From Thermoleophilaceae bacterium (GTDB taxonomy: Bacteria; Actinomycetota; Thermoleophilia; Solirubrobacterales; Thermoleophilaceae), in contig DASUWY010000043.1 of assembly GCA_036378175.1 (NCBI GenBank), positions 1 to 42,720 on the forward strand: DNA of 42,720 bases. The letters are read 5' to 3'. Shown here piece after piece: positions 2,332 to 32,870 of the stretch. Below the pieces are notes generated by a model that saw only the letters and a program-made list of their open reading frames with translations, had not been told where the DNA came from and made no database searches. The translations under genes and the position numbers were made by a program. Within the stretch, counting starts at the first letter, position 1; each line of letters starts with the position of its first letter.

Positions 2332-2350
2332 GCTAGCGGAAAAAACGGCC

Positions 2351-2376: not shown

Positions 2377-2384
2377 TGTATGCA
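2355..2384 (+). promoter_or_regulatory. Predicted housekeeping promoter of the subtilase gene
   Basis: A consensus -35 TTGACA (2355-2360), 18-base spacer, and -10-like TATGCA (2379-2384). Transcription would begin near 2391, about 24 bases before the ATG at 2415. This explains why the in-frame TTG at 2355 is not a plausible translation start: it is part of the -35 box. Confidence 0.5.
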
Positions 2385-2414
2385 GCGGGCCTGCTTCCTT
2401 ACACTGCGTTCCGC

Positions 2415-3677
2415 ATGGGTGCGTGGGCGCGATGCGGGATCGCGGCAGTTCTGTGTGCAGCGCTGGTTCCGGCGGCTGCGTCCGCGGCGAGCAACGATCC
2501 GCTGCGCTCACACCAGTGGGGGCTGGACATGATCCACGCGGACGAGGCGCACGCCGTGACCATTGGCGCCGGCGCCAAGGTGGCGGTGGTGGACACCGGG
2601 ATCGACGCCGCACATCCAGACCTGGCCGGCCGGGTGGGACCCGGGTGGGACTTCGTGGACGGCGATGGCACGCCGCAGGATGGGAACGGCCACGGCACCC
2701 ACGTGTCCGGCATCATCGCGGCGGACGCGAACAACGGGATCGGCGTGGACAGCGTCGCGCCCGGTGCGACGATCATGCCGGTGCGGGTGCTCGACAGCAG
2801 CGGCTCGGGGGCGGACAGCACTGTGGCGCAGGGCATCGACTGGGCCACAGCGCACGGCGCGGACGTGATCAACCTCAGCCTCGGCGGCTCGGTGCCCACC
2901 TCCGGGTTGGGCATCCCCGACGCGATCGGCGCCGCCGTGCAGCGGGCCGTGAACGCGGGCGTGGTGGTGGTGGCGGCGGCCGGCAACGACGGGCTTCCGT
3001 TCTGCGAGAACAACTCGATGGCCGGCAAGGTGCTATGCGTCGGCGCGGTGGACAAGCGCGGCAACCGCAGCTTCTACTCGAGCTTCGGCTCCGGGTTGAG
3101 CCTGGTGGCGCCCGGCGGGTCGGACATCCCCGGGACCGACGAGGACGTGCTCTCCACCTGGAACGACGGCGGCTACCAGGAGCTGGCCGGCACCTCGCAG
3201 GCCACGCCGCACGTGTCCGGCGTGGCGGCGCTGCTCGTGTCGCTCGGCGTGCGCGGCCAGGCGGCGGTGCAGCGCATCCTCGCCACCGCCACGAACCTGG
3301 GGCCCTCTGTGCAGTTCGGGGCGGGGCTGGTGAACGCTCAGGCCGCTGTGGCCGGAATGGGCCAGAAGGGCGGAGGTGCGGAGGGCGGAAGCCGGCGCAC
3401 GCGGGTATCGCTCGCGCGGCGGATGCGGATGCGTTCTCTGCTCCGCCACGGGATCAGGCTCACGTGCAGGCCCGGCCCCTGTTCGGGCGTGGCGCGATAC
3501 CGGCGGGCGGTTGTGGCACGCGGGTCGGGGCGCGGACCGCTCGTGGTGTTGAAGCTGAATCGCCGCGGTCGTCGCAGGCTGACGGCGGCAATGACGAGGC
3601 ACCATCGGTTGCGCTTGCGCGTGACCGTGCGCTACTCCGGCGGCGCGGTGAGGCGGCGGGTGACCCTCATTCGCTGA
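2415..3677 (+). CDS. Secreted subtilisin-family (S8) serine protease
   Basis: 420-residue exported endopeptidase. A signal peptide (residues 1-25, hydrophobic run GIAAVLCAALVPAAASA) leads directly into the catalytic domain without a recognisable I9 propeptide, which is unusual for the family. The triad is visible: Asp60 in VVDTGID, His93 in NGHGTHVSG, Ser261 in AGTSQATPHVSG; Asn191 in AAGND is the oxyanion residue. After residue 340 there is a very basic tail with a Cys pair (CRPGPC) and predicted beta strands, of the type I associate with exported Thermoleophilia proteins. The start at 2415 is supported by the signal peptide and by the promoter at 2355-2384. Substrate unknown. Ends at a hairpin. 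Confidence 0.92.
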   Translation: MGAWARCGIAAVLCAALVPAAASAASNDPLRSHQWGLDMIHADEAHAVTIGAGAKVAVVDTGIDAAHPDLAGRVGPGWDFVDGDGTPQDGNGHGTHVSGIIAADANNGIGVDSVAPGATIMPVRVLDSSGSGADSTVAQGIDWATAHGADVINLSLGGSVPTSGLGIPDAIGAAVQRAVNAGVVVVAAAGNDGLPFCENNSMAGKVLCVGAVDKRGNRSFYSSFGSGLSLVAPGGSDIPGTDEDVLSTWNDGGYQELAGTSQATPHVSGVAALLVSLGVRGQAAVQRILATATNLGPSVQFGAGLVNAQAAVAGMGQKGGGAEGGSRRTRVSLARRMRMRSLLRHGIRLTCRPGPCSGVARYRRAVVARGSGRGPLVVLKLNRRGRRRLTAAMTRHHRLRLRVTVRYSGGAVRRRVTLIR

Positions 3678-3722
3678 GGTGTCTCCATTTGCCTGCGTAT
3701 ATGGCAGCCAGATGGAGACACC
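3678..3722 (+). terminator. Hairpin after protease gene, no T tract
   Basis: Perfect 11-bp arms GGTGTCTCCAT (3678-3688) and ATGGAGACACC (3712-3722), with a short inner TGCC/GGCA pairing. It begins right after the TGA of the protease and ends 20 bases before the next ATG. There is no run of T, so this is a hairpin-type terminator as common in high-GC Gram-positives, or an mRNA-protecting structure. Confidence 0.6.
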
Positions 3723-3742
3723 CCGGTTAGTACGCTCCCGCG

Positions 3743-4882
3743 ATGCCCGCACTGCTGCTCTACGGGGACACCGAGCGAAGCGCCGCGCTTCGCCACGAGG
3801 TGCCGATAGCGATCCTGGACCCGCTGCTCTATGCCGAGACCGGCGGGAGGTCGTTCATCTGCGCGTCCGCTCTCGAAACCGAGCGGCTGCGGGAGGCGCT
3901 TCCGGACGCTGAGCTGATCGATCAGGCGGAACTCGGCTTCTTCGAACTGCTGCGGAGCGGCATGCCGCGCGACGAGGTGGAGCTCGAGATCGTGTCGCGC
4001 GCGGTGAAGCAGGCGGGCGTGGGGGAGGCGATCGTGGACTTCGATTTCCCACTCGGGCTCGCCGAGCGCCTGCGCGCCGATGGGGTGAAGCTCACGGTGG
4101 ACGACCTGTCCGTGAGGCAGCGCCGGCGCGCGAAGAACGACGCCGAGCTCGCCGGCATCCGGCGCGCTCAGGTGGCGGCGCAGGCCGGCATGGCGGCGGT
4201 GGCGGCGCTGCTCAGCCGCGCCGACCCGCTGGACGGGACGCTCCACGTGAACGGCGGGCCCCTTCTCGCCGAAGAGGTGCGCGCGACGTTGCGCGAGGCC
4301 TGCCAGGCCGCCGGCGCGCCTGCGCCGCCGGACGTGATCGTGTCCTCCGCCTGGCAGGGCACCGGCCATGACCCGGGAGCGGGTCCGCTGCCGGCCGGCC
4401 TGCCGATCCACGTGGACGTCTGGCCCTGCGACGAGGCGTCAGGCTGCTGGGCTGACATGGCGCGCACGTTCGTGACGGGCGGCGAGCCGCCGGAGGAGGT
4501 GCTCCGGCAGGAGCGGCTCGTACTCGAGGTGCTGGAGAAGGTGCGCTCAACGGCGCGGCCGGGCGTGCGCGGCAAGGAGCTGCACAACATGGCGTGCGAG
4601 GTGTTCGAGCGCGAGGGCTACCGCACGCAGCGAACCGGCCCGGGTGAGCACCGCTCCGAGGGCTTCCAGTTCTCCCTCGGCCATGGCGTGGGCCTGCGCG
4701 TGCACGAGGATCCGAACGTGGGCCTGGCGGGGGACGCCCCGCTCGTGGAGGGCGACGTGGTGGCGATCGAGCCGGGCCTATGGATGCGCGACGTGGGCGG
4801 CGTGTGCTTCGAGGACCTGCTCCTCATCACGAGCGACGGGTGCGAGACCCTCACGGCCTTTCCGTACGACCTCGCTCCGTAG
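3743..4882 (+). CDS. M24-family metallopeptidase (Xaa-Pro aminopeptidase / creatinase type)
   Basis: 379 residues, cytosolic, no signal peptide. An N-terminal creatinase-like domain (about 1-130) precedes the pita-bread catalytic domain (about 135-379). The five metal ligands are all visible: Asp225 in HVDVWP, Asp238 in WADMARTF, His314 in LGHGVGLRVHE, Glu343 in AIEPGL and Glu357 in CFEDLLL. The enzyme therefore looks active with two divalent metals and probably removes residues before proline. Start ATG 3743 is the first after the hairpin. The 3' end overlaps the convergent small gene at 4851-5048 by 32 bases. Exact specificity cannot be read from the sequence. Confidence 0.9.
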   Translation: MPALLLYGDTERSAALRHEVPIAILDPLLYAETGGRSFICASALETERLREALPDAELIDQAELGFFELLRSGMPRDEVELEIVSRAVKQAGVGEAIVDFDFPLGLAERLRADGVKLTVDDLSVRQRRRAKNDAELAGIRRAQVAAQAGMAAVAALLSRADPLDGTLHVNGGPLLAEEVRATLREACQAAGAPAPPDVIVSSAWQGTGHDPGAGPLPAGLPIHVDVWPCDEASGCWADMARTFVTGGEPPEEVLRQERLVLEVLEKVRSTARPGVRGKELHNMACEVFEREGYRTQRTGPGEHRSEGFQFSLGHGVGLRVHEDPNVGLAGDAPLVEGDVVAIEPGLWMRDVGGVCFEDLLLITSDGCETLTAFPYDLAP

Positions 4883-5048
4883 GACGCTCCTCGAATCCGC
4901 GGCACTCGAGCACCGGCAGCCGCGGGTAGCGCGGAAACTCCGGCTCGGTCCGCGAACGCTCGCACAGCGAGAACACGGAGCCGCGGGTGTTGCGGACGAT
5001 CCGCTGGTGAGCGCAGCTGTCGCATAGCCCGGCCTGGAGCTCCACCAC
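4851..5048 (-). CDS. Small four-cysteine protein, possible zinc binder
   Basis: 65 residues from GTG 5048 (a second GTG follows directly). Four cysteines are arranged C9-x2-C12 ... C29 ... C49 within motifs AGLCDSCAHQR, SVFSLCERS and YPRLPVLECRGFEE. The spacing suggests a small zinc-ribbon-like fold. It reads like a conserved family rather than an antisense shadow, because cysteine, tyrosine and proline are placed in compact motifs and most of the gene lies in otherwise empty DNA. The last 32 bases overlap the end of the peptidase gene. Function unknown. Confidence 0.65.
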   Translation of the reverse strand: MVELQAGLCDSCAHQRIVRNTRGSVFSLCERSRTEPEFPRYPRLPVLECRGFEERPTERGRTERP

Positions 5049-5103
5049 GAGTGGCAGGCTAATCGGCTGTTAGCAACGGCGCCGTACCGGCTACTGGACC
5101 CAA

Positions 5104-5889
5104 ATGGGCGGCAGCCGCGAGCTCGACACGCTGCTTCGCGGCTTCCGCGCCGTCGGTCTCCGCGAGCTCGAGAGCCGCGCTGCGCTGCTCAAGCGCGTGG
5201 ACGTGAAGTACGTGGTGGGCTGGGACACGTTCGCCGCGCTGTGCGAGCGGCTCCGCACCGAGCACGAGGTGCTCGAGCTGGACGGCCGCCGCGTGTTCAA
5301 CTACGAGACCGTCTACTTCGACACGCCCGACCTCCGCTGCTACCGCGAGCACGCGGAGGGGCAGGTGCCGCGCTTCAAGGCACGCACGCGGCTGTACAGC
5401 GACTCCGATCGCTGCGTGTTCGAGGTGAAGGTGAAGGTGACTGGCGACGAGACGGACAAGCGCCAGATCGAGCATGCCGCCGAGAGCCGCGCGACGGTGA
5501 CCGAACACGCCGCCGCCTTCCTCGCCGACACTCTGCGCGAGAGGGGCATCGAGCCGCCCACGGCTCTCGAGGCGAGCCTTCGCACGCGCTTTCGCCGCTG
5601 CACCCCCGCGGCTGCGGCGGGGGCCGATCGGGTGACCTGCGACTTCGACCTCGAGCTCGCTCGCGACGGCGCGACCGGGACACCCCACCCTGCAAGCGTG
5701 GTGCTCGAGACAAAGAGCGAGACCGGCCACATCGCCGCCGACTCCGCCCTCGCCGACCTCGGCGCCGAGCCCGTGTCGTTCAGCAAGTACCGAGCGGGTA
5801 TCGAGCTTCTTACAGATCTTCCTGAGCGCGCGGCTCAGACGGGGCCCGGAACTGCGCCCGCTGCCGCCGGCCCTGCTGGAAGACGATGA
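5104..5889 (+). CDS. VTC-domain (CYTH superfamily) polyphosphate polymerase-like protein
   Basis: 261 residues. The tunnel-fold VTC domain is recognised from RVDVKYVV (catalytic-type Lys35), the strand motif YETVYFDTPDLRCYREH, the basic pair in PRFKARTRLY, FEVKVKV, the acidic ETKSE and the closing SFSKYRAGI. In eukaryotic Vtc4 this fold makes polyphosphate from ATP; bacterial stand-alone members are mostly uncharacterised. No membrane segment or SPX domain is present. The domain ends near residue 238; the last 26 residues (bases 5810-5889) are read through the end of the convergent DedA gene and look like low-complexity tail. Start ATG 5104 fits the domain start. Confidence 0.85.
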   Translation: MGGSRELDTLLRGFRAVGLRELESRAALLKRVDVKYVVGWDTFAALCERLRTEHEVLELDGRRVFNYETVYFDTPDLRCYREHAEGQVPRFKARTRLYSDSDRCVFEVKVKVTGDETDKRQIEHAAESRATVTEHAAAFLADTLRERGIEPPTALEASLRTRFRRCTPAAAAGADRVTCDFDLELARDGATGTPHPASVVLETKSETGHIAADSALADLGAEPVSFSKYRAGIELLTDLPERAAQTGPGTAPAAAGPAGRR

Positions 5890-6508
5890 GCACCACCAGC
5901 GCGATCGTGACGTAGAGCGAGTAGTGCGACACCTGGTGGACCACGTCCACCGCCCGCTGCCCGAGGCCGTAGCCCAGGCCCACCAGCAGCGCGGTCCAGA
6001 TCAGCGCGCCGATCACGTCGCAGATCAGGAACACCACCAGTCGCATGCGCGCCCAGCCCGCGGCGGCGTCGACGAGCACCGTCGGCACCGGCAGGACGTA
6101 CGCGAGGATCACGGCGGCCGGGCCGAAGCGATGCATCAGCCGCCGTACGCGCTCGGCGCGGCGCAGCCCCTTCGGGTGCGCGCCGCCCAGCATGCGCAGG
6201 GCTCCCGCGCCCCAGCGGCGGCCCGCCCACCAGTACGCCCAGTCGAAGGCGATGAGCGCCGGAATGCTCGCGACGAGCGCCACCGCCAAGTGGGCGTGGC
6301 CCGTTCGCGCAAGCGCGCCCATGGTCACGATCGAGGTGGTGGAGCCCCGGATCAGCTCGAGCAGCAGCGGATGGGTGCCAACAAGCGACGGCACGAGCGG
6401 CAGGAGCACGAGCGCGTACAAGCCGCTGATCGTGATCCCGGCGATGATCACCAGGTCCGCCGGCTCGGCGCGGCCTTCCCACGGGGTGCTCTGCCGGGGC
6501 TCGCTCAT
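5810..6508 (-). CDS. DedA-family (SNARE-associated) membrane protein
   Basis: 232 residues, about five to six membrane segments. Family features: the FDWAYWWAGRRWG motif near residue 90, the RFGPAAVILAYVLPVP segment near 130 with the conserved Arg/Pro of DedA transporters, and GALIWTALLVGLGYGLG near 180. DedA proteins flip undecaprenyl phosphate or phospholipids across the inner membrane. Start at ATG 6508; an in-frame GTG three codons upstream is possible. The open frame extends much further upstream but those residues do not look like protein. Convergent with the VTC gene, overlapping by 80 bases; divergent from the next gene. Confidence 0.85.
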   Translation of the reverse strand: MSEPRQSTPWEGRAEPADLVIIAGITISGLYALVLLPLVPSLVGTHPLLLELIRGSTTSIVTMGALARTGHAHLAVALVASIPALIAFDWAYWWAGRRWGAGALRMLGGAHPKGLRRAERVRRLMHRFGPAAVILAYVLPVPTVLVDAAAGWARMRLVVFLICDVIGALIWTALLVGLGYGLGQRAVDVVHQVSHYSLYVTIALVVLIVFQQGRRQRAQFRAPSEPRAQEDL

Positions 6509-6716
6509 CCTGTTCACGATAGGGCCTAAACCCGTAGGCGCGAAAGCGTGCGCTTGCGCTGACACTCGCCCGCGGCGCAGCGGTATTTCGGGAGTAGAAG
6601 CACGCCGCTCCCGGTAGCCCAGGCGGCAGGTGAGCCTCGACTTCCCCCTATCGAGCGTATGTCTCTGCGCGGCACAGGCCGGGACGGTCGCGCTGCCGTG
6701 CAATATCCCCGCGCGC

Positions 6717-7433
6717 GTGCGAGTAAGGAAGGCGGCGTGGGGCCTCGTCCCCCTTGCCTCGATCGTGCTGACAGTGGTGGCGCTGCGAGAGGCGGCGGGG
6801 GCGGCCGCGATGCTCACATACCTCTCCCTCGCGGCCGTGCCGCCCCTCGCAGCGCTAGCGCTGGCGCGCGGCGTCCGCTGGAGGAATCCGCGTCTGGCGC
6901 TGCTCGTGATTCCGCTGTTCCTCATCGCGTGGGGCCGGCGCAACGAGCTCTCCGGCCAGGTGGCGGCCGTGGTGCTGTCGATCCTTGCGTCCGTCACGCT
7001 CGCGATCCTGGTCACCCAGCTCGCGCCGCTCCGCTGGCTGAAGGTCGGGATCCTGCTCACCGCCGTGGGCGACGTGGCGATGATCGGCGCGCACTACCTC
7101 CAGCCGGCGCAGGACCTGCTCAACTTCGCCACCCCGAGCTTCGACCTGCCGGCTTTCCAGCGGGTGCTGCTGAGCGGGGTGGTGATGGGCTTCGGCGACT
7201 TCTTCGTGGCGGCGCTGCTGGGCGCTGTGCTTGCGGCCGAGGGCCATCGGTATCAGGACCGGGCGGCCGTGATCACGTTCGCCCTGGCGCTCGCCTTCGA
7301 CCTGCTCTTCATCGAGATCCCCGTGCTGCCGGCCACTGTGCCGGTGGCGGTGGCGCTGCTGGTGGTCGAGCGGCGGGCGCGGCGCGCGAAGCCGGAGCCC
7401 GCACCCGCGGTCGCCACCGCGGACACCGGTTAA
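6717..7433 (+). CDS. Polytopic membrane protein with GxGD-like motif, possible intramembrane protease relative
   Basis: About 238 residues with roughly seven hydrophobic segments. One segment carries ILLTAVGDVAMIGAHYL and the next GVVMGFGDFFVAALLGAVL, followed by a last segment with IPVLPATVPVAVALL. One Asp in each of two consecutive helices, the second in GFGD, then a Pro-Ala-containing helix, resembles the Asp / GxGD / PAL layout of presenilin-type (A22) aspartyl intramembrane proteases. The usual YD is replaced by GD, so this is a suggestion only. The GTG at 6717 is preferred; the frame is open from GTG 6630, but those 29 residues are Cys-rich and unlike the rest. Divergent from DedA; followed by a hairpin. 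Confidence 0.7.
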   Translation: MRVRKAAWGLVPLASIVLTVVALREAAGAAAMLTYLSLAAVPPLAALALARGVRWRNPRLALLVIPLFLIAWGRRNELSGQVAAVVLSILASVTLAILVTQLAPLRWLKVGILLTAVGDVAMIGAHYLQPAQDLLNFATPSFDLPAFQRVLLSGVVMGFGDFFVAALLGAVLAAEGHRYQDRAAVITFALALAFDLLFIEIPVLPATVPVAVALLVVERRARRAKPEPAPAVATADTG

Positions 7434-7463
7434 CCGCCCGCGCGGACGCAGGCTGGCTCCCGT

Positions 7464-7483
7464 GTCCTGGACGGCGCCAGGAC
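7464..7483 (+). terminator. Hairpin terminator GTCCTGG-N6-CCAGGAC
   Basis: Perfect 7-bp stem with a 6-base loop, 30 bases after the stop of the membrane protein gene, followed by the AT-richer GGATTATTGGTT. It likely ends that transcript. Confidence 0.6.
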
Positions 7484-7488
7484 GGATT

Positions 7489-7511
7489 ATTGGTTCATCG
7501 TCCATACCAAT
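7489..7511. promoter_or_regulatory. Inverted repeat ATTGGT-N11-ACCAAT
   Basis: Perfect 6-bp arms (7489-7494, 7506-7511) ending 14 bases before the ATG at 7526, in the only AT-rich patch nearby. It could be a repressor operator or a leader hairpin next to the ribosome site GGAG (7516-7519). Confidence 0.35.
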
Positions 7512-7525
7512 ATCCGGAGCTCACG

Positions 7526-7993
7526 ATGACCCGCCCCATCACAAGGAACTTCTGTAAGCCGGTCGCGGCAGGGCCGGACACCACGTATGCGGCTCTCACC
7601 CGCTTCCAGGCGCGGCCGCGGCTCGAGGAGGCGCTTGCCGCGCTGGGCGTCGAGGACCGCGTGATCTCGAGCCACCGTCTGGAGGTGGCGCCCCGGCGCG
7701 CCGTCGGCCATGCGCTCGTCTGGCGGCTCGCGAATGGCGGCCGCGTGGAGCTCACCTGGACAGCCTGCGTGACGAGCGACGGCGCGGACGGCTCACTGCT
7801 CTCGCTAAAGATGCGCGCCATCGCCGACAGCGCGATCACGCGCACGCACCTGCTGGCGGCGTGGCCCGTGCTCGGCCGGCTGGCCGAGGCGCACGCCCGG
7901 CGCGTCCTCGCCGCGGTGGCCGAGCTTGCCGACCGCTTCGACGAGGAAGAGGCCGTGCCCGTCGTGCGCGTGCCGGTGCGCCGCGCCGCCTAG
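7526..7993 (+). CDS. Hypothetical protein, 155 aa
   Basis: A soluble 155-residue protein starting at ATG 7526 with GGAG seven bases upstream. No family was recognised. The sequence alternates strands (VISSHRLEVAP, GHALVWRLANGGRVELTW, SLLSLKMRAIAD) and ends in a long helix (AHARRVLAAVAELADRF), an order seen in SRPBCC/START-like folds, but this is weak. Its TAG stop (7991-7993) lies inside the 6-bp target duplicated by the neighbouring insertion sequence, so the protein is unchanged by the insertion. Confidence 0.7.
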   Translation: MTRPITRNFCKPVAAGPDTTYAALTRFQARPRLEEALAALGVEDRVISSHRLEVAPRRAVGHALVWRLANGGRVELTWTACVTSDGADGSLLSLKMRAIADSAITRTHLLAAWPVLGRLAEAHARRVLAAVAELADRFDEEEAVPVVRVPVRRAA

Positions 7994-7994
7994 C
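7989..7994. repeat. Target-site duplication, left copy (CCTAGC)
   Basis: The 6 bases directly before the left end of the insertion sequence are identical to the 6 after its right end (9053-9058). They match the NCTAGN target known for IS481. Confidence 0.93.
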
Positions 7995-8020
7995 TGTAGT
8001 TCCTAGGTACGTTCGTCAGT
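7995..8020 (+). repeat. Left terminal inverted repeat of the IS481 element
   Basis: 26 bp beginning TGTAGTTCCTAGG. It pairs with 9027-9052 at 22 of 26 positions and itself contains a CTAG at 8003-8006. Confidence 0.93.
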
Positions 8021-8035
8021 AGGCCATCCGGGCCC

Positions 8036-8075
8036 CCTTGGAGGCTGAGAGGTGCGAACCAACTCAGTCCCAAGG
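8036..8075 (+). promoter_or_regulatory. Hairpin covering the transposase ribosome binding site
   Basis: Arms CCTTGG..CTGAG (8036-8049) and CTCAG..CCAAGG (8063-8075) form an 11-bp stem with a small internal bulge. The 3' arm takes up AAGG of the ribosome site AAGGAGG (8072-8078). A folded transcript would hide the ribosome site of the transposase start at 8086. Confidence 0.55.
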
Positions 8076-8085
8076 AGGACTCCGG

Positions 8086-9057
8086 ATGAAGCTTCACGGT
8101 AATGCCCGCACCTGTCCGAACAGCCGCAGGCTGCTCGTCGAGCGGATCGAAAGCAAGGCTTGGTCGCTGGCGACGGCGGCCGCGGCCGCCGGCGTCAGCG
8201 AGCGCACGGCCTGGCGTTGGCTGAAGCGCTGGCGTCAGGAGGGCGAGCGGGGCCTGCTCGACCGCAGCTCACGGCCGCACCGCTCGCCGACCCGGTTGCC
8301 GCAGCCAAAGGTCGACGCGATCGAGAAGCTGCGCAGGCTCTGGATGACGGCGGCGCAGATCGCCGAGATGTTGGGCCTCGCGCTCTCGACGGTGTCGCTC
8401 TGGCTCAAACGGATCGGGCTCGGGCGCCGCTCGCGGCTGGAACCGCCCGAGCCGCCCAACCGCTACGAGCGCCGCCATCCCGGCGAGCTCGTGCACGTCG
8501 ACATCAAAACGCTCGGGCGCATTTCCGAGCGCGGCGCCGGCTGGCGCGTCACCGGCAGCCGCAAAAGCCAGTTCAAGGCACACCAGGACGGCCGCAGCCG
8601 CGGCGTCACACGTTTCGAGTTCGTGCACGTCGCCGTCGACGACCACTCGCGCCTGGCTTACGCCGAGGTGCTCGACAATCTCGACGCGGTCACCGCCGTC
8701 GGCTTCCTCAAGCGCGCGGTCACGTGGTTCTCAGAACGCGGCATCGGCATCAGGGAAGTGATGACCGACAACGGCGCCGCCTACGTCTCATTCGCCCACC
8801 GCGACGCCTGCGCCCAGCTCGGCATCCGCCACCTGCGCATCAAACCCGGGCGGCCACGGACGAACGGGAAGGCCGAACGCTTCATCCAAACCCTCAAGAA
8901 CGAATGGGCCTACGCGCGCATCTACGGCAGCTCAGCAGAACGCACCGAGGCCCTCTCGTTCTTCCTAAACCACTACAACTTCAGACGCCCACACGGCTCT
9001 CTCGGCCACAAACCCCCAGCGTCACGACTGACCAACGTCGTTAGGAACTACACCTAG
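8086..9057 (+). CDS. IS481-family DDE transposase; stop codon supplied by target DNA
   Basis: 323 residues from ATG 8086, which has a perfect AAGGAGG seven bases upstream. N-terminal helix-turn-helix (about 18-110: SERTAWRWLKRWRQEG and STVSLWLKRIGLGR) binds the ends; the rve-type catalytic core carries the DDE triad in VHVDIK, MTDNGAAY and GKAERFIQTLKNEW. The C-terminal SLGHKPPASRL is typical of the family. The element ends with the first base of the last codon; the remaining two bases and the TAG stop (9055-9057) come from the duplicated target CCTAGC. No frameshift or truncation. Confidence 0.96.
   Translation: MKLHGNARTCPNSRRLLVERIESKAWSLATAAAAAGVSERTAWRWLKRWRQEGERGLLDRSSRPHRSPTRLPQPKVDAIEKLRRLWMTAAQIAEMLGLALSTVSLWLKRIGLGRRSRLEPPEPPNRYERRHPGELVHVDIKTLGRISERGAGWRVTGSRKSQFKAHQDGRSRGVTRFEFVHVAVDDHSRLAYAEVLDNLDAVTAVGFLKRAVTWFSERGIGIREVMTDNGAAYVSFAHRDACAQLGIRHLRIKPGRPRTNGKAERFIQTLKNEWAYARIYGSSAERTEALSFFLNHYNFRRPHGSLGHKPPASRLTNVVRNYT
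9027..9052 (-). repeat. Right terminal inverted repeat of the IS481 element
   Basis: Reads TGTAGTTCCTAACG on the minus strand, matching 22 of 26 positions of the left end. It overlaps the last codons of the transposase. Confidence 0.93.
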
Positions 9058-24084: not shown

Positions 24085-24818
24085 GCGAAGACCGCTTCGC
24101 GGATCTCGGCCCCGGCGATCGCAAGCAGTCTCCGGCGCAGCGCCTCGCCGAGCTCGACGAGCTGGACCTCGCCCGGGAGCGCGAATCGAAGCCCGCGGGC
24201 CCGCCGCCGCGACCTGCCGGCCGCTACATGTGGGTGGTGGGCGTGGTGTTCGTGCTCGCCGTGATCGTCGCGGGAGTGAACGCGCTCCGCCACAGCGGCG
24301 GGAGCCTGCGAGGCCCCGCACTGAACAAGCCGCTGCCCGAGTTCGCCGCGCCGCTCGCAACCAGCAGCCTCGACGGCGACGCGAATGTGAAGCAGCACAA
24401 GGGACAGTCGAACCAGCTGGGCGCCGTGCCCGCCTGCCAGGTGCACGTGCCCGGGAGCATCACCTCGTGCGAGCTGAGCCGCAAGCCGCTCGTGCTGTCC
24501 GTGATCGTGCCGGGGGCCACCAGGTGCGAGGCACAGCTCGACCTCTTCCAGCGCATGGCGGCCGCGCACCCGCGGGCGCAGTTCGCCGCGGTGGTGAGCG
24601 GCGGCAGCCATGCGAAGGTGGCGGCGCTCGTCCGCCGGCGCGGCTGGACCTTCCCCGTGGCGGTGGACCGTGATCTGTCCATCTTCAACCTGTACCGCGT
24701 GGCCGTTTGCCCCACCACCGTGTTCGCGCGGCGCGGGGGTGAGGTGAAGAGCACGTCGATCAAGCCGCTCACGGAGCAGCAGGTGCTGGCGGGCCTTCGG
24801 GCGGTCGGCGGGGCGTGA
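24081..24818 (+). CDS. Membrane-anchored thioredoxin-fold protein without CxxC
   Basis: 245 residues; GTG 24081 overlaps the previous stop (GTGA). A charged cytosolic N-terminus (1-48) and one membrane helix (49-68) precede an outward-facing domain resembling redoxins: PLPEFAAPL, KPLVLSVIVPGATRCEAQL, then VAVCPTTVFARRGGEV with the cis-Pro loop of the thioredoxin fold. There is no CxxC; two lone Cys (ACQVH, SCELSRK) plus one in TRCEAQ might act in peroxiredoxin fashion, or the fold is only structural. Its place directly after the pump suggests a partner in envelope work, but this is inference. Confidence 0.75.
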   Translation: MSEDRFADLGPGDRKQSPAQRLAELDELDLARERESKPAGPPPRPAGRYMWVVGVVFVLAVIVAGVNALRHSGGSLRGPALNKPLPEFAAPLATSSLDGDANVKQHKGQSNQLGAVPACQVHVPGSITSCELSRKPLVLSVIVPGATRCEAQLDLFQRMAAAHPRAQFAAVVSGGSHAKVAALVRRRGWTFPVAVDRDLSIFNLYRVAVCPTTVFARRGGEVKSTSIKPLTEQQVLAGLRAVGGA

Positions 24819-25462
24819 GCAGCGAGCCCCGCCTTCGCCGAGGCTGGGTCGAGGGGGAGCTCGCGGCGGAGTTCCCGGAGCTGAGCCTGATCCACACGAG
24901 CCTGCCGGTTCGCACCGGGCGCAGCCCGCGAGCGGTGAAGGAGCGGCTGAAGGTGATGAGCGATCGCTTCACCGGCCCGAAGGCGGTGCAGGTGCGTCAG
25001 CAGCCCGTGCCGTGGGCGTATCGCGTGTTCTTTCGCCAGATCGGCATCGACCCCGACCACACGCGCACGCCACCCGAGGCGGCCGCGCTCGAGCGCATGC
25101 GCGCGGGCGGCTTCAAGAGCTATGGCCTCCTCGACGACGCGCTCGTAATCGCGACCGTGGAGACTGGCGTGCCGGTCCTCGCATACGACGCAGACCGCGT
25201 GAGCGGGGAGCCGGGGCTGCGTCTTGCGATGACGGGCGAGCGCCTGGGCGGCGACGGCCGCGACCTGCGCGGCGGCGAGATCGTCGTGGCCGACGAGTCG
25301 TGCTCGCTGGCCGTGCTGTTTGGCGACACCGCGGCGCGCTGCGCCGCGCATTCCGGGATGCAGCGCGTGCTACTCGCCGCCGTTCAGGTGAAGGGAGTGC
25401 CCGACGTGAGCGCCGAGGAAGCGCTCTGGATAGCCGCGGAAACGCTTGGGGAGGCCGACTAG
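24815..25462 (+). CDS. Free-standing B3/B4 tRNA-editing-like domain protein
   Basis: 215 residues; GTG 24815 overlaps the preceding stop. The sequence matches the B3/B4 domain otherwise found in the beta subunit of phenylalanyl-tRNA synthetase, where it clears mischarged Tyr-tRNA. Seen here: VPWAYRVFFRQIGIDPDHTR, PPEAAALERM, VPVLAYDADRVSG and the closing LLAAVQVKGVPDVSAEEAL. Stand-alone copies are common in bacteria and probably hydrolyse misacylated tRNA or a related ester. Its co-transcription with a lipid pump has no clear logic. Confidence 0.85.
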   Translation: MSSEPRLRRGWVEGELAAEFPELSLIHTSLPVRTGRSPRAVKERLKVMSDRFTGPKAVQVRQQPVPWAYRVFFRQIGIDPDHTRTPPEAAALERMRAGGFKSYGLLDDALVIATVETGVPVLAYDADRVSGEPGLRLAMTGERLGGDGRDLRGGEIVVADESCSLAVLFGDTAARCAAHSGMQRVLLAAVQVKGVPDVSAEEALWIAAETLGEAD

Positions 25463-27299: not shown

Positions 27300-28718
27300 T
27301 TGCGCTCGACAAAGATCGTGGCCACGATTGGGCCGGCCTCGCGTTCGCTCGACGTCCTCGAGCGGATGATCCAGGCGGGGATGGACGTGGCGCGCCTGAA
27401 CTTCGCGCACGAGACTCCTGAGGAGCACGCCGACACGGTCACGATGATCCGCCAGGCCTCCGAGCGGGCGGGCCGGGAGGTGGCGGTGCTTCAGGACGTG
27501 CCTGGCCCGAAGCTGCGGATCGGTCCCGTGCAGGACGGCGTGATCGAGCTGGGTACCGGCACACGGGTGGTCCTCACGCCTGAGAGGGTCGAGGGGACGT
27601 CCGAGAGGCTGCCGGTGGCGTGGCCGGGTCTCGCCGAGATCATGCACACGGGGGACGTGGCCTACCTGGCGGACGGCGCCATCCGGCTGCGGGTGGACGA
27701 GGTGAACGACGGCGAGGTGATCACCGAGGTGGAGGTGGGCGGCACGCTCGCGTCGCGTCAGGGGCTCAACCTGCCGAACGTGACGATGGCGCTGCCCGCC
27801 GTGAGCGAGGAGGACCTCCGGCTGATCGACGCGGGCGTGGAAATGGGTGTGGACCTGCTGGCGCTCTCGTTCGTTCGCAGCAGGGCGGATCTCGAGCCGG
27901 TGAAGGAGCGCCTTCAGGCGCACCGGCGCGACATCCCCGTGATCGCGAAGATCGAGAAGCCGCAGGCCGCGGCGAACGCCGAGGAGATCGTGGCCGCCGC
28001 CGACGGGATCATGGTGGCGCGCGGGGACCTCGGCATCGAGCTCCGCATCGAGGAGGTGCCGCTCGTGCAGAAGCGGCTGCTCATGCTGTCCGGGCGCTAC
28101 GCCAAGCCGGCGATCACGGCCACCCAGATGCTCGAGTCGATGGTGCACTCCAGCCGCCCAACGCGCGCCGAGGTCACGGACGTGGCGAACGCGATCTTCG
28201 ACGGAACCGACGCGGTGATGCTCTCGCAGGAGACGGCGATCGGCCGCTACCCGGTGGAGGCGGTGGCGATGATGGCGTCGATCGCCGAGACCACGGAGCG
28301 GGAGCTGCCGTATGGGCGCTGGCTCACCGACCGCGGCGGCCACCACAACGGCAGCGACGAGTCCGCCACCATCGCCTATGGCGCGGTGGGCGCCGCCTAC
28401 CAGCTCAACCTCAAGGCGCTCGTGGTGCCGACCCTCACCGGGCGCACCGCCGCGCTCATGTCCGCCCACCGCCCGAAGATGCCGGTGCTGGCCCTCTCGC
28501 CGCGCGAGGACGTCGTGCGCCGGCTGTCGCTTCACTGGGGCGTGCGGGCGCAGCTCAACGAGGAGCCGAGCGAGACATTCGATCTGCTCGAGGAGTGCTC
28601 TCAGGCAGCGAAGGCGGCAGGGATGGTCTCACCCGGCGATCGGATCGGCATCACGGCCGGGCTGCCTGCGGGGAAGGCGGGCGGTACGAACCTGTTCAAG
28701 GTTCACACGGTGGAGTAG
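27300..28718 (+). CDS. pyk: Pyruvate kinase
   Basis: 472 residues. Converts phosphoenolpyruvate and ADP to pyruvate and ATP, the last step of glycolysis. Visible: STKIVATIGPAS start, LNFAHETPEEH (the usual NFSHG is NFAHE here), B domain (about 70-165), IAKIEKPQAAAN with the catalytic Lys, MVARGDLGIE and TATQMLESM at the active site, and the C-domain to GGTNLFKVHTVE. Start TTG 27300 is chosen because GGAGG lies 8 bases upstream and the family begins RSTKIVATIGP; in-frame GTGs at 27285 and 27294 are alternatives. Preceded by a structured leader. Its last 90 bases overlap the convergent Cfa-type gene. Confidence 0.96.
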   Translation: MRSTKIVATIGPASRSLDVLERMIQAGMDVARLNFAHETPEEHADTVTMIRQASERAGREVAVLQDVPGPKLRIGPVQDGVIELGTGTRVVLTPERVEGTSERLPVAWPGLAEIMHTGDVAYLADGAIRLRVDEVNDGEVITEVEVGGTLASRQGLNLPNVTMALPAVSEEDLRLIDAGVEMGVDLLALSFVRSRADLEPVKERLQAHRRDIPVIAKIEKPQAAANAEEIVAAADGIMVARGDLGIELRIEEVPLVQKRLLMLSGRYAKPAITATQMLESMVHSSRPTRAEVTDVANAIFDGTDAVMLSQETAIGRYPVEAVAMMASIAETTERELPYGRWLTDRGGHHNGSDESATIAYGAVGAAYQLNLKALVVPTLTGRTAALMSAHRPKMPVLALSPREDVVRRLSLHWGVRAQLNEEPSETFDLLEECSQAAKAAGMVSPGDRIGITAGLPAGKAGGTNLFKVHTVE

Positions 28719-29915
28719 CGCGGAGGGCTCTCGCCTGAACCGCGGCTTGGCCAGCAGCACCTGCACGTCCCTGATCCGCCGTTCAGCGAAGCCCGCCTCG
28801 CAATACGCGAGGTAGAAGCGCCACAGACGCTGGAAGCGCTCGTCGTAGCCGCGCCTGCTGAGCTCGTCGGCCGCCTGCTCGAGGTTGGCGCGCCATGCGC
28901 GCAGCGTGGGGACGTAGTGGGCGCTGATGTCCTCGAGCCCGATGAGGCGGAGGTCGGTGTTCGCGGCCACCTCGCTCGAGATCACCTCCACGGAGGGAAG
29001 GCAGCCCTCGGGGAAGATGAGGTCGCGGATGAAGGTCGACGAGTGCTTCTCAACGTCGTAGGCGCGGTCGTCGATCGTGATCGCCTGGAGCAGCATCGTG
29101 CCGTCGGGCTCGAGCAGCCGTGAGCAGCGCTCGAAGAAGGTGCCGAACTCGCGCCAGCCCACCGCCTCGATCATCTCGATCGACACGAGCTTGTCGAAGT
29201 GGCCGCGAAGGTCGCGATAGTCCTCGAGCAGGAGCGTCACGCGGTCGTCCAGCCCAGCGTCATGGACGGCCCGCTCGGCGTACTCGTACTGCTCGCGCGA
29301 GAGCGTGGTGGTGGTCACCCGGCAGCCGTACTCGGCGGCGGCGTGGAGGGCGAAGCTGCCCCAGCCGGTGCCGATCTCGAGCACGTGGTCCTCGGGCTCG
29401 AGGCGCAGCTTCCGGCAGACCCGGTCGAGCTTCGCCAGTGAGGCCTCCTCGAGGCTCGTTTCCGGCGACTCGAAGAAGCCGCACGAGTAGGTCATGGTCG
29501 GGTCGAGCATCAGCTCGAACAGGTCGTTGCCGAGGTCGTAGTGCGCGGAGATCGCCTGGCGGGCCCGGTCACGCGTGTTGCGCCGGCTGTTGCCTCTCAG
29601 GTAGTTCAGTGGCGCGCGCAGAGGCGCGAGGCGGGCGCGCAGCCGGTCGTACGGCTCGATGTTGAGCGCGCACAGACGCACCACGTCGGCGGGATCGGGC
29701 GAGTCCCACAGCCCGTCCGCATACGACTCCGCCAGCCCGCGGCTCCCGCGGAGCAGCGCGGCCCAGACGCGCGGGGAGCGAACGTGGACCGTCGCGCTCG
29801 GCTCGCCATGGCCGAATCGGCGCCGGGTGCCGTTCTCGACGATCTCCACGCTGCCCACGCGCATGCGCCCGAGCATCGCGCCGATGGCAACCCGGCCGAC
29901 GCCCTCGGCGTTCAT
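28629..29915 (-). CDS. cfa: Cyclopropane-fatty-acid synthase-type SAM methyltransferase
   Basis: 428 residues. Family features: HYDLGNDLFELMLDPTMTYS (about 130-149), the SAM loop VLEIGTGWGSFALHAA, the EMIEAVGWREFGTFF active-site segment, and LIFPEGCLPS. Enzymes of this COG2230 family add a methylene or methyl group across the double bond of phospholipid acyl chains. Linked to a COG2907 flavoprotein and DUF1365, it may instead belong to the methyltransferases of furan or branched fatty acid routes. Start ATG 29915 overlaps the DUF1365 stop. The conserved part ends at LLAKPRF; the last 35 or so residues read into the pyk gene and look non-conserved. Confidence 0.92.
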   Translation of the reverse strand: MNAEGVGRVAIGAMLGRMRVGSVEIVENGTRRRFGHGEPSATVHVRSPRVWAALLRGSRGLAESYADGLWDSPDPADVVRLCALNIEPYDRLRARLAPLRAPLNYLRGNSRRNTRDRARQAISAHYDLGNDLFELMLDPTMTYSCGFFESPETSLEEASLAKLDRVCRKLRLEPEDHVLEIGTGWGSFALHAAAEYGCRVTTTTLSREQYEYAERAVHDAGLDDRVTLLLEDYRDLRGHFDKLVSIEMIEAVGWREFGTFFERCSRLLEPDGTMLLQAITIDDRAYDVEKHSSTFIRDLIFPEGCLPSVEVISSEVAANTDLRLIGLEDISAHYVPTLRAWRANLEQAADELSRRGYDERFQRLWRFYLAYCEAGFAERRIRDVQVLLAKPRFRREPSALLHRVNLEQVRTARLPRRQPGRDADPIAG

Positions 29916-30658
29916 CGCCGGGCTGCTCCTGGATGCGAGTACACCGGCACGCCTCGCAGCTTGAGCCGCAGCGCCTGACCGTAGATGCGGCTGAGCACGT
30001 GCAGCGTGTTCATCGGATGGCGCAGCGTGGCGAACGCGAGCGATCGTTCCGTGAGCTCCCGCCGGGCGAGGTTGAGCGTCGCGTCGAACGCTCGCTCGCC
30101 GGATCGGTGGCTTTCGATGTGCACGCTCAGAGTTTGCCCCGGAACCCCCACTCTCCATTCGTACTCGTGGTCCATTCCCATGAACGGAGACACGTGCAGC
30201 ACCTTGCTGGAGCGGCCGCTGAGCACGCGGCCGCCGTTCGAGTGCGAGAGGGCGTAGGCGTGGCGTTCGCCCCACGGCGTGTTGGTTACCTCCGCGAGCA
30301 CCGCCTCCACCCGCTCACCCGGCGGGTCGAAGCAGTAGTAGAAGCTCACCGGGTTGAAGCAATGGCCGAAGCTGCGGAGGTTCGTGAGGAGGCGGACGGG
30401 ACCCTCGGGCCGAGCACCGGTGAGAGCCTCCACGCGCTCGCGCACGGCACCGGCGAGGTCCGAGCGGGGGTCGCCCAGATAGTCCGAGCGGCGGAAGCGC
30501 ACGAGTCCGCGTCGCGGCGACGCAAGCCGGCCTCCGAGGAGATCCGGCAGCTCCTCGAGGTCGATGTACGCCATATAGATGGAGTACCGGAATTCGCGCG
30601 AACGAACCGCCACCCGGCGGTGGCGGACCGTGCCCTCATAGAGCGCGCTGGCGGTCAC
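29912..30658 (-). CDS. DUF1365 (COG3496) family protein
   Basis: 248 residues. GTG 30658 overlaps the stop of the preceding gene (GTGA), which fixes the start; further upstream the frame stays open but is not protein-like. Family motifs: ALYEGTVRHRRV at the N-terminus, RLLTNLRSFGHCFNPVSFYY (about 100-119), EVTNTPWGERHAY, KVLHVSPFMGM and the C-terminal YGQALRLKLRGVPVY. The biochemical role is unknown, but the family is nearly always between a COG2907 flavoprotein and a Cfa-type methyltransferase, as here, so it probably acts on modified acyl chains. Confidence 0.9.
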   Translation of the reverse strand: MTASALYEGTVRHRRVAVRSREFRYSIYMAYIDLEELPDLLGGRLASPRRGLVRFRRSDYLGDPRSDLAGAVRERVEALTGARPEGPVRLLTNLRSFGHCFNPVSFYYCFDPPGERVEAVLAEVTNTPWGERHAYALSHSNGGRVLSGRSSKVLHVSPFMGMDHEYEWRVGVPGQTLSVHIESHRSGERAFDATLNLARRELTERSLAFATLRHPMNTLHVLSRIYGQALRLKLRGVPVYSHPGAARR

Positions 30659-31899
30659 GCGAGGCGAGCTCCCAGCCGCTCGCACACCCGAAGCGCGCTC
30701 ACCACGCCGTCCTCGTGAAACCCCCAGCCCCAATACGCGCCGCAGTAGTGGGTGCGGGCGGTGCCGCTGATCTCCGCGTGCCGCTGCTGCGCCCGCGCGC
30801 CGCCCGAGGTGTAGACGGGGTGCTCGTACTCGATCGTCTTGATCACCTGGCCGGGATCGATCGCCTCGCCGCGGTTGAGCGTGACGCAGAACTCCCGGTC
30901 GGCGGACAGCGACTGGAGCCGGTTCATGTGGTAGGTCACCCGGGTGCGGCCGCTGCTCTCGCCGCCGAGGTGGTAGTTCCAGCTCGCCCAGGCGCGCCGC
31001 CGGCGGGGAAGCAGCCGGCGGTCGGTGTGGAGCACCGCCTCGTTGAGCTGGTAGGGGATCGCGCCGAGGATCTCGTGCTCGCGGTCGCTGGCGTCGGCGA
31101 GCATTCGCAGCGCCTGGTCGGAGTGCACGGCCAGGATCACGTGGTCGAAGGTCTCGGGCTCGCCGCCGCGCGGGATCACGCTCACCTGGTCCGCGTGCCG
31201 CTCGATCGCCGTCACGGGCACGCCGCTCCGGATACGGTCGGCGAAGCCCGCCGTGAGCGCATCAACGTACGTCTGGGACCCACCCTTCACGGTTCGCCAG
31301 TTGGGCCTGTCACGGAGGTGCAGCACGCCGTGATTGTCGAAGAAGCTGAACAGGAAGCGGGCCGGGAACGTCCACATCTGGCCCGGGTCCGCCGACCACA
31401 CGGCGGACGCCTGCGGCACGATCAGGCGGTCGATGAAGAGCCGCGAGAAGCGCAGCTGCTCGAGCCACTCCCCGAGCGACGGATCGCCATCGCCGGTGAG
31501 GAGGGCGCGTGCCTCGCGCTGGAAGCGCCGCACCTCCACGAGCATGTGGTGGAAGCGCGGCGACACAATGTGCCTGCGCGTGGCGAACAACCCGTTGGCC
31601 GACACGCTCGAGTACTCGAACTCGCCCGTGCTGTCGCTCACGCCGAAGCTCATCTGTGACGGTTGCCACGCCACGCCGAGGCGGGTGAGCAGGCGCTCGA
31701 AGTTCGGGTAGTTGCGGTCGTTGAAGACGATGAAGCCGGTGTCCACGTGGTGCGTCTCGTATTCGGTGTCCACCCGGATCGTGTTGGTGTGGCCGCCAGG
31801 CTTCGGCCCGGCCTCGAACACCGTCACCTCGTGCTCGCGCTGAAGCAGGTAGCCCGCCACGAGCCCGGACACGCCGGCACCCACGATCGCGATCCTCAT
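30655..31899 (-). CDS. COG2907-type FAD-dependent oxidoreductase (amine-oxidase fold)
   Basis: 414 residues starting at ATG 31899 with the dinucleotide-binding motif MRIAIVGAGVSGLVAGYLL and FEAGPKPGGHTNT. Further family marks: DTGFIVFNDRNYPNF, AVWSADPGQMWTFPA, WRTVKGGSQTYVDAL and the C-terminal YCGAYWGWGFHEDGV that closes the FAD site. Such proteins are annotated as desaturases or oxidases acting on lipids; in furan fatty acid producers a flavoprotein of this kind is thought to introduce the second double bond. Overlaps its neighbours by 4 bases on both sides, so the four genes are translationally coupled. Confidence 0.92.
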   Translation of the reverse strand: MRIAIVGAGVSGLVAGYLLQREHEVTVFEAGPKPGGHTNTIRVDTEYETHHVDTGFIVFNDRNYPNFERLLTRLGVAWQPSQMSFGVSDSTGEFEYSSVSANGLFATRRHIVSPRFHHMLVEVRRFQREARALLTGDGDPSLGEWLEQLRFSRLFIDRLIVPQASAVWSADPGQMWTFPARFLFSFFDNHGVLHLRDRPNWRTVKGGSQTYVDALTAGFADRIRSGVPVTAIERHADQVSVIPRGGEPETFDHVILAVHSDQALRMLADASDREHEILGAIPYQLNEAVLHTDRRLLPRRRRAWASWNYHLGGESSGRTRVTYHMNRLQSLSADREFCVTLNRGEAIDPGQVIKTIEYEHPVYTSGGARAQQRHAEISGTARTHYCGAYWGWGFHEDGVVSALRVCERLGARLA

Positions 31900-32813
31900 A
31901 GCTCGAGCCCCGTAAGTCGCACACATTCCGACCACAGCCGCGCACGCTCCTCATCCGACTCGCGGGTGCGGCGCAACACGTGCGTGGGCCGCCGCTCGCG
32001 GTCGTGCCAGAAACCGCCGCCTGGTTGCCTAGTGGCGGCCAGCCAGACGATCGTGTCCGCGCCCTCCTCCGGCGAGCGCAGCGCCGGCTTCATCAGCTTG
32101 TGGAAGCGTGGGAGCGACCGCTCGAGGCCCGGCGTGTCCACCCAGCCGGGGTGCATCGAATGGGCCGCAACTCCGTGCGGGTTCAGCCGCTCCGCCCACA
32201 TCTCGCCGAGCACCACCTGGGCGCGCTTGTGGCGGGCGTACACGGCAGTGCCGTCGTAGTCGTGGCGCTCCGACTGGAGGTTGTCGACGGGGAGGCGCGC
32301 CGTGTACATGCCGCCGGAGGACACGTTCACGATCGTGGAGGGTGCGCCCGCCTCGAGCGTGGGAACGAGCAGACCGGTGAGGAGGAACGGGCCCAGCACG
32401 TTCGTGGCGAGTGCGAACTCGTTGCCGTCCACCGACAGCGAGCGCTCGGCGGACAGCACGCCCGCGTTGTTTACGAGCACGTGGAGCTCAGGCTGCTCGT
32501 CGCGGAAGCGGCGAGCGAACTCGCGTACCGAGCGGAGGCTCGACAGATCGCACTCCCACACCCGTTCGGCGCCGCTCTGCTCGCGCGCCCGCTCGCCACG
32601 CTCCTCGTCGCGCGCCAGGATCTGCACCCGCGCGCCGAGTCCGGCGAGAGCCGTCGCGGCCGCGAGACCGATGCCGCTCGTGGCGCCCGTGACCATCACC
32701 AGGCGCCCGTCCATTCGCGGAAGTTCGCCCCACCAGCGGCTCCTGACGGAGTAACCGAGCCGGCTGTAACCCGGCACGACCGTGAGGTCTAGCGCGCGGT
32801 CCAGGGCATGCAC
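31896..32813 (-). CDS. Short-chain dehydrogenase/reductase, DHRS12-like
   Basis: 305 residues. Cofactor motif VTGATSGIG (about 41-49), HVLVNNAG, NVSSGG with the catalytic Ser, and YARHK with the catalytic Tyr and Lys. The N-terminal extension ALDRALDLTVVPGYSRLGY is characteristic of the DHRS12-like subgroup and supports the GTG start at 32813 over the ATG at 32714. First gene of the operon SDR, flavoprotein, DUF1365, methyltransferase. The substrate is probably a lipid aldehyde or ketone, by context only. An ECF-type promoter lies 29 bases upstream. Confidence 0.92.
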   Translation of the reverse strand: MHALDRALDLTVVPGYSRLGYSVRSRWWGELPRMDGRLVMVTGATSGIGLAAATALAGLGARVQILARDEERGERAREQSGAERVWECDLSSLRSVREFARRFRDEQPELHVLVNNAGVLSAERSLSVDGNEFALATNVLGPFLLTGLLVPTLEAGAPSTIVNVSSGGMYTARLPVDNLQSERHDYDGTAVYARHKRAQVVLGEMWAERLNPHGVAAHSMHPGWVDTPGLERSLPRFHKLMKPALRSPEEGADTIVWLAATRQPGGGFWHDRERRPTHVLRRTRESDEERARLWSECVRLTGLEL

Positions 32814-32841: not shown

Positions 32842-32870
32842 GTTTACGAGGGGGCTAGCCGTACGGATCA
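32842..32870 (-). promoter_or_regulatory. Candidate ECF-sigma promoter TGATCC-N18-TAAAC of the lipid-modification operon
   Basis: On the minus strand the -35 element TGATCC (32870-32865) is followed by exactly 18 bases and TAAAC (32846-32842), about 29 bases before the GTG of the SDR gene. The consensus I know for the RpoE (ECF11) factor of Rhodobacter, controlled by ChrR and singlet oxygen, is TGATCC-N18-TAAGA. No rpoE or chrR gene is in the window. Confidence 0.5.

What the first reader, a model, noticed from the sequence alone, without database searches (positions are those of the whole stretch)
32842..32870. Singlet-oxygen-type ECF promoter in front of the SDR / COG2907 / DUF1365 / Cfa operon
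Seen: TGATCC, exactly 18 bases, TAAAC, 29 bases before the first gene, in the right orientation. Known: in Rhodobacter sphaeroides the RpoE-ChrR system uses TGATCC-N18-TAAGA, and in many Proteobacteria the same gene set (SDR, COG2907 flavoprotein, DUF1365, Cfa-type methyltransferase) sits with rpoE and chrR and is linked to singlet-oxygen response and furan fatty acids. Inferred: this Gram-positive lineage carries the target operon and a matching promoter, so photo-oxidative control of membrane lipids may extend to it. A six-base -35 plus exact spacing arises by chance only rarely, but the -10 is imperfect.
Basis: partly seen in the sequence, partly recalled or inferred. Interest (0 to 1): 0.66.

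Follow-up and report, generated by a model that had tools for sequence, protein, structure and literature searches.

The report
SigK-type stress promoter driving furan-lipid genes
The DNA box in front of this lipid-modifying operon in an uncultured actinobacterium is very probably a genuine stress promoter, but it most likely answers to a relative of the tuberculosis sigma factor SigK and its membrane anti-sigma RskA rather than to the Rhodobacter singlet-oxygen pair RpoE-ChrR, which gives a testable idea of what SigK-type switches are for.

Summary
The box is real. On the minus strand, TGATCC-N16-CGTAAAC (32870-32842) lies 28 bp before an overlapping SDR-ufaD-ufaO-ufaM operon, the furan-fatty-acid gene set. 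It matches every specified base of the published ECF11 consensus TGATCC-N16-CGTA; the supposed poor "-10" is a good one read two bases late.

It is conserved. In 41 related ufa operons, 18 upstream regions score above the 99% shuffle threshold on the sense strand and none on the antisense strand.

No full-length ChrR was found in this genome or in 100 relatives. Instead, the same exact box stands directly before an ECF sigma gene on contig C76 of this genome. That sigma is closest to M. tuberculosis SigK, and its partner has zf-HC2, one membrane helix and an RskA_C domain. Orthologous sigma genes carry the box in 43 of 72 cases and sit beside ufaDOM in genus g40. Elsewhere in Actinomycetota, SigK/RskA-like pairs also neighbour ufa genes.

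Best reading: a SigK/RskA-type regulon (autoregulation, ufa operon, tatAC, a Tat-exported ferritin-like protein, possibly egtB) using an ECF11-like promoter. A photo-oxidative signal is plausible but untested. New variant of a known kind.

The parts
32865..32870 (-). -35 element TGATCC of the ECF promoter
   Evidence: read directly; conserved before orthologous ufa operons and before the cognate-candidate sigma genes
   Evidence: read directly; among the sigma-gene boxes with a 15-18 spacer all are N16 or N17 followed by CGTA or CGAA
32814..32841 (-). short leader between the -10 and the first start codon (28 bases)
   Evidence: coordinates; transcription start not mapped
31896..32813 (-). first gene: short-chain dehydrogenase/reductase, 305 aa; in most relatives the operon starts without it
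   Evidence: Pfam adh_short 2.8e-28; ortholog in the same place in G001/L092
30655..31899 (-). ufaD-type COG2907 flavoprotein (likely start ATG at 31899, overlapping the SDR stop)
   Evidence: Amino_oxidase 1.6e-24, NAD_binding_8 9.5e-17; D-O-M order in relatives; start
29912..30658 (-). ufaO-type DUF1365 protein (likely start GTG at 30658, overlapping the ufaD stop)
   Evidence: PF07103 2.5e-72; start
28629..29915 (-). ufaM-type cyclopropane-fatty-acid-synthase-like SAM methyltransferase (likely start ATG at 29915, overlapping the ufaO stop)
   Evidence: CMAS PF02353 5e-88; start

Best explanation
The site is a promoter for an ECF sigma factor of the SigK/RskA type encoded elsewhere in the same genome (contig C76: sigma 24142-24717, anti-sigma 24714-25412). 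Proposed working: in unstressed cells the membrane-anchored anti-sigma holds the sigma through its N-terminal zinc-finger-like domain. When the anti-sigma is inactivated (signal unknown; oxidative or photo-oxidative damage at the membrane is the leading guess), the sigma is freed, reads TGATCC-N16-CGTA in front of its own gene (positive feedback), the SDR-ufaD-ufaO-ufaM operon and a few other units (tatA-tatC, a Tat-exported ferritin-like protein, perhaps egtB and FAD oxidases), and membrane lipids are converted towards methylated/furan fatty acids that scavenge oxidants. Shown here by sequence: the box, its conservation, the operon, the sigma/anti-sigma pair with the same box, and their linkage to ufa genes in relatives. 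Inferred: that this sigma reads the box, the signal, and the lipid product.
For: (1) Exact TGATCC-N16-CGTA both here and 36 bp before the C76 sigma gene; 7 exact sites in 4.29 Mb. (2) The box precedes 43 of 72 distinct orthologous sigma genes: 48 of 72 have TGATCC on the sense strand within 230 bp, against 8 on the antisense strand and 2.4 expected in shuffles; spacing always 16 or 17 although 15-18 was allowed. (3) With a scoring matrix whose -10 and spacing come only from sigma-gene boxes, 18 of 41 ufa upstream regions pass the 99% shuffle threshold on the sense strand and 0 on the antisense strand (0.4 expected); the own site ranks fourth. (4) In genus g40 sigma, RskA and ufaDOM lie together, with boxes before both transcription units in G066, G090 and G078. 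(5) Sigma closest to SigK 4nqw (3e-23, 85.6 bits) before RpoE 2q1z (70.7 bits); profile 107.8 against 90.9 bits; anti-sigma has RskA_C 3.4e-19, zf-HC2 6.2e-10 and one hydrophobic helix. (6) In other Actinomycetota a SigK-like/RskA-like pair lies near ufa genes in 8 of the 31 loci examined. (7) Of 22 relaxed sites in the genome 9 are intergenic in promoter position, including tatAC and a ferritin-like gene; the same gene families neighbour sigma/ufa in G076 and G078. (8) Literature: Rv0449c belongs to the M. tuberculosis SigK regulon (PMC5547695); light induces SigK-type targets in M. kansasii (PMC9861118); a SigK/RskA-like pair is induced by singlet oxygen in R. capsulatus (PMC7074977).
Against: No transcription start, binding or expression data. 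The congeneric genome G001 (88% complete) has operon and box but no ortholog of the sigma was found; G072 (95% complete) likewise, though 3 of its 35 candidates were not scored. About half of the ufa operons in the order lack a recognisable box, and genus g37 has GCAACC instead of TGATCC, so some are under other control. About 40 sigma-70 family genes exist in this genome, so another ECF could read the box. egtB carries the box in only a few relatives. The sigma is below the NCBIfam SigK cut-off (139.7 against 226).
Confidence: 0.83

Rival explanations
1. One reading: a true ECF11 sigma with a ChrR (cupin) anti-sigma controls the operon.
For: Promoter matches the ECF11 consensus exactly (PMC5507510); same target genes as the R. 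sphaeroides RpoE regulon.
Against: No ChrR above cut-off in this genome (95% complete) or in 100 relatives; the match in this genome is N-terminal only and is the RskA-type protein itself. Cupin_7 matches in the genome lie on contigs C81, C47 and C79, not beside the candidate sigma on C76. The sigma carrying the same box is closer to SigK.
Confidence: 0.04
2. The box is a real ECF promoter, but a different ECF of this genome reads it.
For: About 40 sigma-70 family proteins in the genome; other ECF-RskA pairs lie just upstream of ufaD in G085, G079 and L244; G001 has the box but no C76-type sigma was found.
Against: Among the exact sites in this genome only the C76 sigma has the box directly in front of its own start, and its orthologs keep it.
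Confidence: 0.1
3. Chance match in a GC-rich intergenic region.
For: Seven exact sites occur in 4.29 Mb and three of them lie inside genes.
Against: Position, orientation, conservation across genera and the sense/antisense contrast of 18 to 0; box and spacer kept in G001 while adjacent sequence differs by an indel.
Confidence: 0.02
4. TGATCC is over-represented because TGA is often the stop codon of the upstream gene.
For: In G001 and some g40 genomes the TGA of the box coincides with the upstream stop.
Against: ATCC and the CGTA at N16/17 are not explained by a stop codon; in this window the upstream stop is about 100 bp away.
Confidence: 0.01

Closest known systems
SigK-RskA of Mycobacterium tuberculosis (ECF18/19) with its Rv0449c promoter
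   Same: ECF sigma plus single-pass anti-sigma with RskA_C; autoregulation; SigK-like/RskA-like genes close to COG2907-DUF1365-Cfa genes in several actinobacterial loci
   Different: -35 is TGATCC here, where mycobacterial SigK uses CCATCC (from memory; CCATCC-N16/17-CGAAT is seen before ufaD in L410, L419, L420); no cysteine in the sigma, so no C133-C183 disulfide (PMC7509140); sigma and ufa operon are on different contigs in this genome
RpoE-ChrR of Rhodobacter sphaeroides / PSPTO_1043-1042 of Pseudomonas syringae (ECF11)
   Same: promoter consensus TGATCC-N16-CGTA and ufa/cfa target genes
   Different: anti-sigma is RskA-type and membrane-anchored, not ChrR with a cupin zinc domain; sigma closer to SigK
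rpoE-chrR locus of Rhodobacter capsulatus
   Same: reported to resemble SigK-RskA more than RpoE-ChrR and induced by singlet oxygen (PMC7074977)
   Different: that genome is reported to lack homologs of the RSP_1087-1091 (ufaD/ufaO) operon; different phylum
UfaM-UfaD-UfaO furan fatty acid pathway
   Same: all three families present in overlapping gene order
   Different: extra leading SDR; no furan fatty acid measured in this lineage as far as the searches made here show

Membership tests
ECF11 / RpoE-ChrR system | promoter TGATCC-N16-CGTA | tested here: met
ECF11 / RpoE-ChrR system | sigma of the ECF11 group | tested here: not met
   candidate sigma scores higher with SigK (85.6 bits) than RpoE (70.7); profile 107.8 against 90.9. 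No ECF11-specific model or tree was available, so this rests on relative scores
ECF11 / RpoE-ChrR system | ChrR anti-sigma: N-terminal zinc domain plus C-terminal cupin domain | tested here: not met
   TIGR02451 over cut-off in 0 of 101 genomes; the adjacent anti-sigma is zf-HC2 + RskA_C
ECF11 / RpoE-ChrR system | induction by singlet oxygen | not testable with these tools
   needs a culture
SigK-RskA system | anti-sigma with N-terminal zinc-finger-like domain, one membrane helix and RskA_C domain | tested here: met
   zf-HC2 6.2e-10, RskA_C 3.4e-19; hydrophobic stretch at residues 99-117, H-x3-C-x2-C
SigK-RskA system | sigma belongs to SigK (ECF18/19) | tested here: inconclusive
   best solved match is SigK but below the NCBIfam SigK cut-off, 139.7 against 226
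SigK-RskA system | paired cysteines in SigK (94% of ECF18, 56% of ECF19, PMC7509140) | tested here: not met
   no cysteine in this sigma; 26 of 73 orthologs have any
SigK-RskA system | autoregulation (promoter of the sigma's own specificity in front of the sigma gene) | tested here: met
   by sequence only: same box 36 bp before the sigma gene and before 43 of 72 distinct orthologs
SigK-RskA system | CCATCC-type -35 | tested here: not met
   TGATCC here; the mycobacterial motif itself is recalled, not read here
UfaD-UfaO-UfaM furan fatty acid pathway | COG2907 flavoprotein, DUF1365 protein and Cfa-type methyltransferase together | tested here: met
   COG2907 itself inferred from Amino_oxidase match and gene order
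UfaD-UfaO-UfaM furan fatty acid pathway | furan or methylated fatty acids in the lipids | not testable with these tools
   needs lipid analysis

The most novel reading that the evidence does not exclude
SigK-RskA in actinobacteria and RpoE-ChrR in Proteobacteria are two regulator versions attached to one membrane-oxidation response, with the ufa operon as shared core target. The unknown trigger of SigK, including in mycobacteria, would then be singlet oxygen or oxidised membrane lipid, and the first output methylated/furan fatty acids.
Probability: 0.3. Interest if true: 0.8.

Novelty: new variant of a known kind. Interest (0 to 1): 0.58.

Why it matters
The signal and role of the SigK regulon are described as unknown or obscure in two papers read here (PMC5547695, PMC9861118), while the biochemistry of the UfaM/UfaD/UfaO enzymes is known (PMC7380195). 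A conserved SigK/RskA-type promoter in front of exactly these genes turns an open question (what does SigK sense and do?) into a direct test: light plus photosensitiser or lipid oxidation, then RNA and fatty-acid analysis. It also shows how similar the promoters of ECF11 and SigK-type sigmas can be, so a promoter box alone should not be used to name the sigma.

Tried and rejected
Full ChrR search (TIGR02451) and cupin search (PF12973): no ChrR-like pair; the three weak cupin hits in the own genome were not followed further. Conservation of the box before egtB was tested as a possible regulon member and as a control: a box in only 3 of 29 relatives (two of them in one genus, one of the three 272 bp away), so egtB is at most an occasional member. 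The ferritin-like gene has no homolog in relatives at E<=1e-20, so its box could not be checked by conservation. Among the 80 ufa loci the TGATC-type box within 400 bp of ufaD was found only in Solirubrobacterales/Actinomycetes loci, so it is not a general property of ufa operons. The primary paper on the mycobacterial SigK consensus is not held.

Full report
Observation. On the minus strand the window reads TGATCC (32870-32865), 18 bases, TAAAC (32846-32842), then 28 bases to the GTG start of the first gene. The pattern with a 17-19 spacer is expected 0.06 times in the window and occurs once; with N18 it occurs once in the whole genome. The same site read as TGATCC-N16-CGTA matches every specified base of the ChIP-seq consensus published for the P. 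syringae ECF11 sigma PSPTO_1043 (PMC5507510), so the '-10' is a good CGTA rather than an imperfect TAAGA.

The operon. SDR (adh_short), COG2907-type flavoprotein (Amino_oxidase), DUF1365 and a CMAS methyltransferase. With the likely starts (31899, 30658, 29915) each downstream gene overlaps the stop of the one before by four bases, so one transcript is very likely. The last three are the families of UfaD, UfaO and UfaM, which make furan fatty acids in R. sphaeroides and R. palustris (PMC7380195). The same D-O-M order is found throughout the order and in many other phyla. The organism belongs to Solirubrobacterales: the contig of the congeneric G001 is named Thermoleophilaceae.

Conservation. 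In G001 the box, the spacer and the -10 are kept (TGATCC-N17-CGTATAAG) while about 100 bases just upstream differ by an indel. A scoring matrix was built whose -10 and spacing came only from boxes in front of sigma genes and whose -35 was TGATCC with tolerance for mismatches. Applied to 200 bp upstream of 41 ufa operons (own site included), it puts 18 regions above the 99% level of dinucleotide shuffles on the sense strand and none on the antisense strand, where 0.4 would be expected. Genus g19 has TCATCC; genus g37 has GCAACC with CGTA at N16, which this matrix does not reach but which one search shows. In one search the -35 variants had been chosen after reading the sequences, so one search is the fairer test. 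Among the 80 ufa loci, those of Proteobacteria, Nitrospira, Gemmatimonadetes, Planctomycetes and others lacked the TGATC-type box within 400 bp of ufaD.

The regulator. No ChrR reaches its cut-off in 101 genomes. Among seven exact TGATCC-N16-CGTA sites of the genome, one stands 36 bp before an ECF sigma gene on contig C76, followed at once by an anti-sigma gene. The sigma's best solved relative is M. tuberculosis SigK, ahead of R. sphaeroides RpoE. The anti-sigma has zf-HC2 and RskA_C, a single hydrophobic helix and an H-x3-C-x2-C motif. Orthologs occur in 72 of 101 relatives, and 43 of 72 distinct genes examined carry TGATCC-N16/17-CG[TA]A in front, with spacing only 16 or 17 although 15-18 was allowed (one search counts 44 of 73 with one gene present twice). 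In genus g40 (G066, G090, G076, G078) sigma, RskA-type gene and ufaDOM are neighbours; G066, G090 and G078 have boxes before both units (the G090 ufaD box is TGATCT), and G076 has TGATCC before ufaD with a poorer -10.

Regulon. With CGTA or CGAA at N16/17 the genome has 22 sites, against 5 for the pattern read backwards. Thirteen lie inside genes; nine are intergenic in promoter position: this operon, the sigma gene, tatA-tatC, a divergent Tat-signal ferritin-like gene, a BBE-type FAD oxidase, an FAD oxidoreductase of the geranylgeranyl-reductase superfamily, egtB (TIGR03440 over cut-off), a small protein of unknown family, and ftsH (identified by reading, not by a family search). tatA-tatC lies between the sigma pair and ufaD in G076, and a ferritin-like protein gene next to the anti-sigma in G078, which independently links these gene families. 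egtB has the box in only a few relatives.

Wider pattern. In Actinomycetota outside the order, SigK-like and RskA-like genes lie within the fetched flanks of ufa genes in several genomes (L414-L419, L421, L422), in L417 and L419 just downstream on the same strand. L410, L419 and L420 have CCATCC-N16/17-CGAAT before ufaD, although L419 also has one antisense match in the same stretch. A second ECF group with its own RskA-like anti-sigma precedes ufaD in G085, G079 and L244, with a fasciclin-like gene end upstream in two of them (recognised by eye). Rv0449c is a SigK-regulon gene in M. tuberculosis (PMC5547695); that Rv0449c-Rv0447c are the UfaD/UfaO/UfaM homologs is from memory. Light induces the SigK-type target genes mpk83 and mpk70 in M. 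kansasii (PMC9861118), and a SigK/RskA-like pair is induced by singlet oxygen in R. capsulatus (PMC7074977). Among the best-ranked papers returned, none treated furan fatty acids together with actinobacterial SigK.

Verdict. Works like: an ECF11-type membrane-oxidation response. Is a member of: more likely the SigK-RskA kind, with formal ECF group placement open. Photo-oxidative control is an inference supported only by analogy.

Noticed in passing
L105 (G085), L116 (G079), L244 upstream of ufaD: A second, different ECF group with an RskA-like anti-sigma lies just upstream of ufaD, preceded in G085 and G079 by what looks like the end of a fasciclin-domain gene, reminiscent of MPT70/MPT83 in the SigK regulon.
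   Followed up: partly
genus g37 and neighbours: L100, L107, L110, L114, L118: ufaD is preceded by GCAACC-N16/17-CGTA instead of TGATCC, suggesting a lineage-wide shift of -35 specificity or a regulator swap.
   Followed up: partly
L137 (G078) 1408-8190: Photolyase, a MerR regulator with a DICT sensory domain and an NAD-epimerase-like protein flank the ufa operon near the sigma/RskA pair: a light-damage-flavoured neighbourhood.
   Followed up: partly
G000 contig C77 4621-4687: Two divergent TGATCC boxes 15 bp apart, one towards tatA-tatC and one towards a Tat-signal ferritin-like protein that has no homolog at E<=1e-20 in 100 relatives.
   Followed up: partly
G000 contig C24 129035: Box in front of egtB (ergothioneine synthesis); seen again in G019 and, with TGAACC, in G006, not in most relatives.
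   Followed up: yes
own genome G000: 42 sigma-70 region 2 matches, several with long fused C-terminal regions: a rich sigma repertoire.
   Followed up: no
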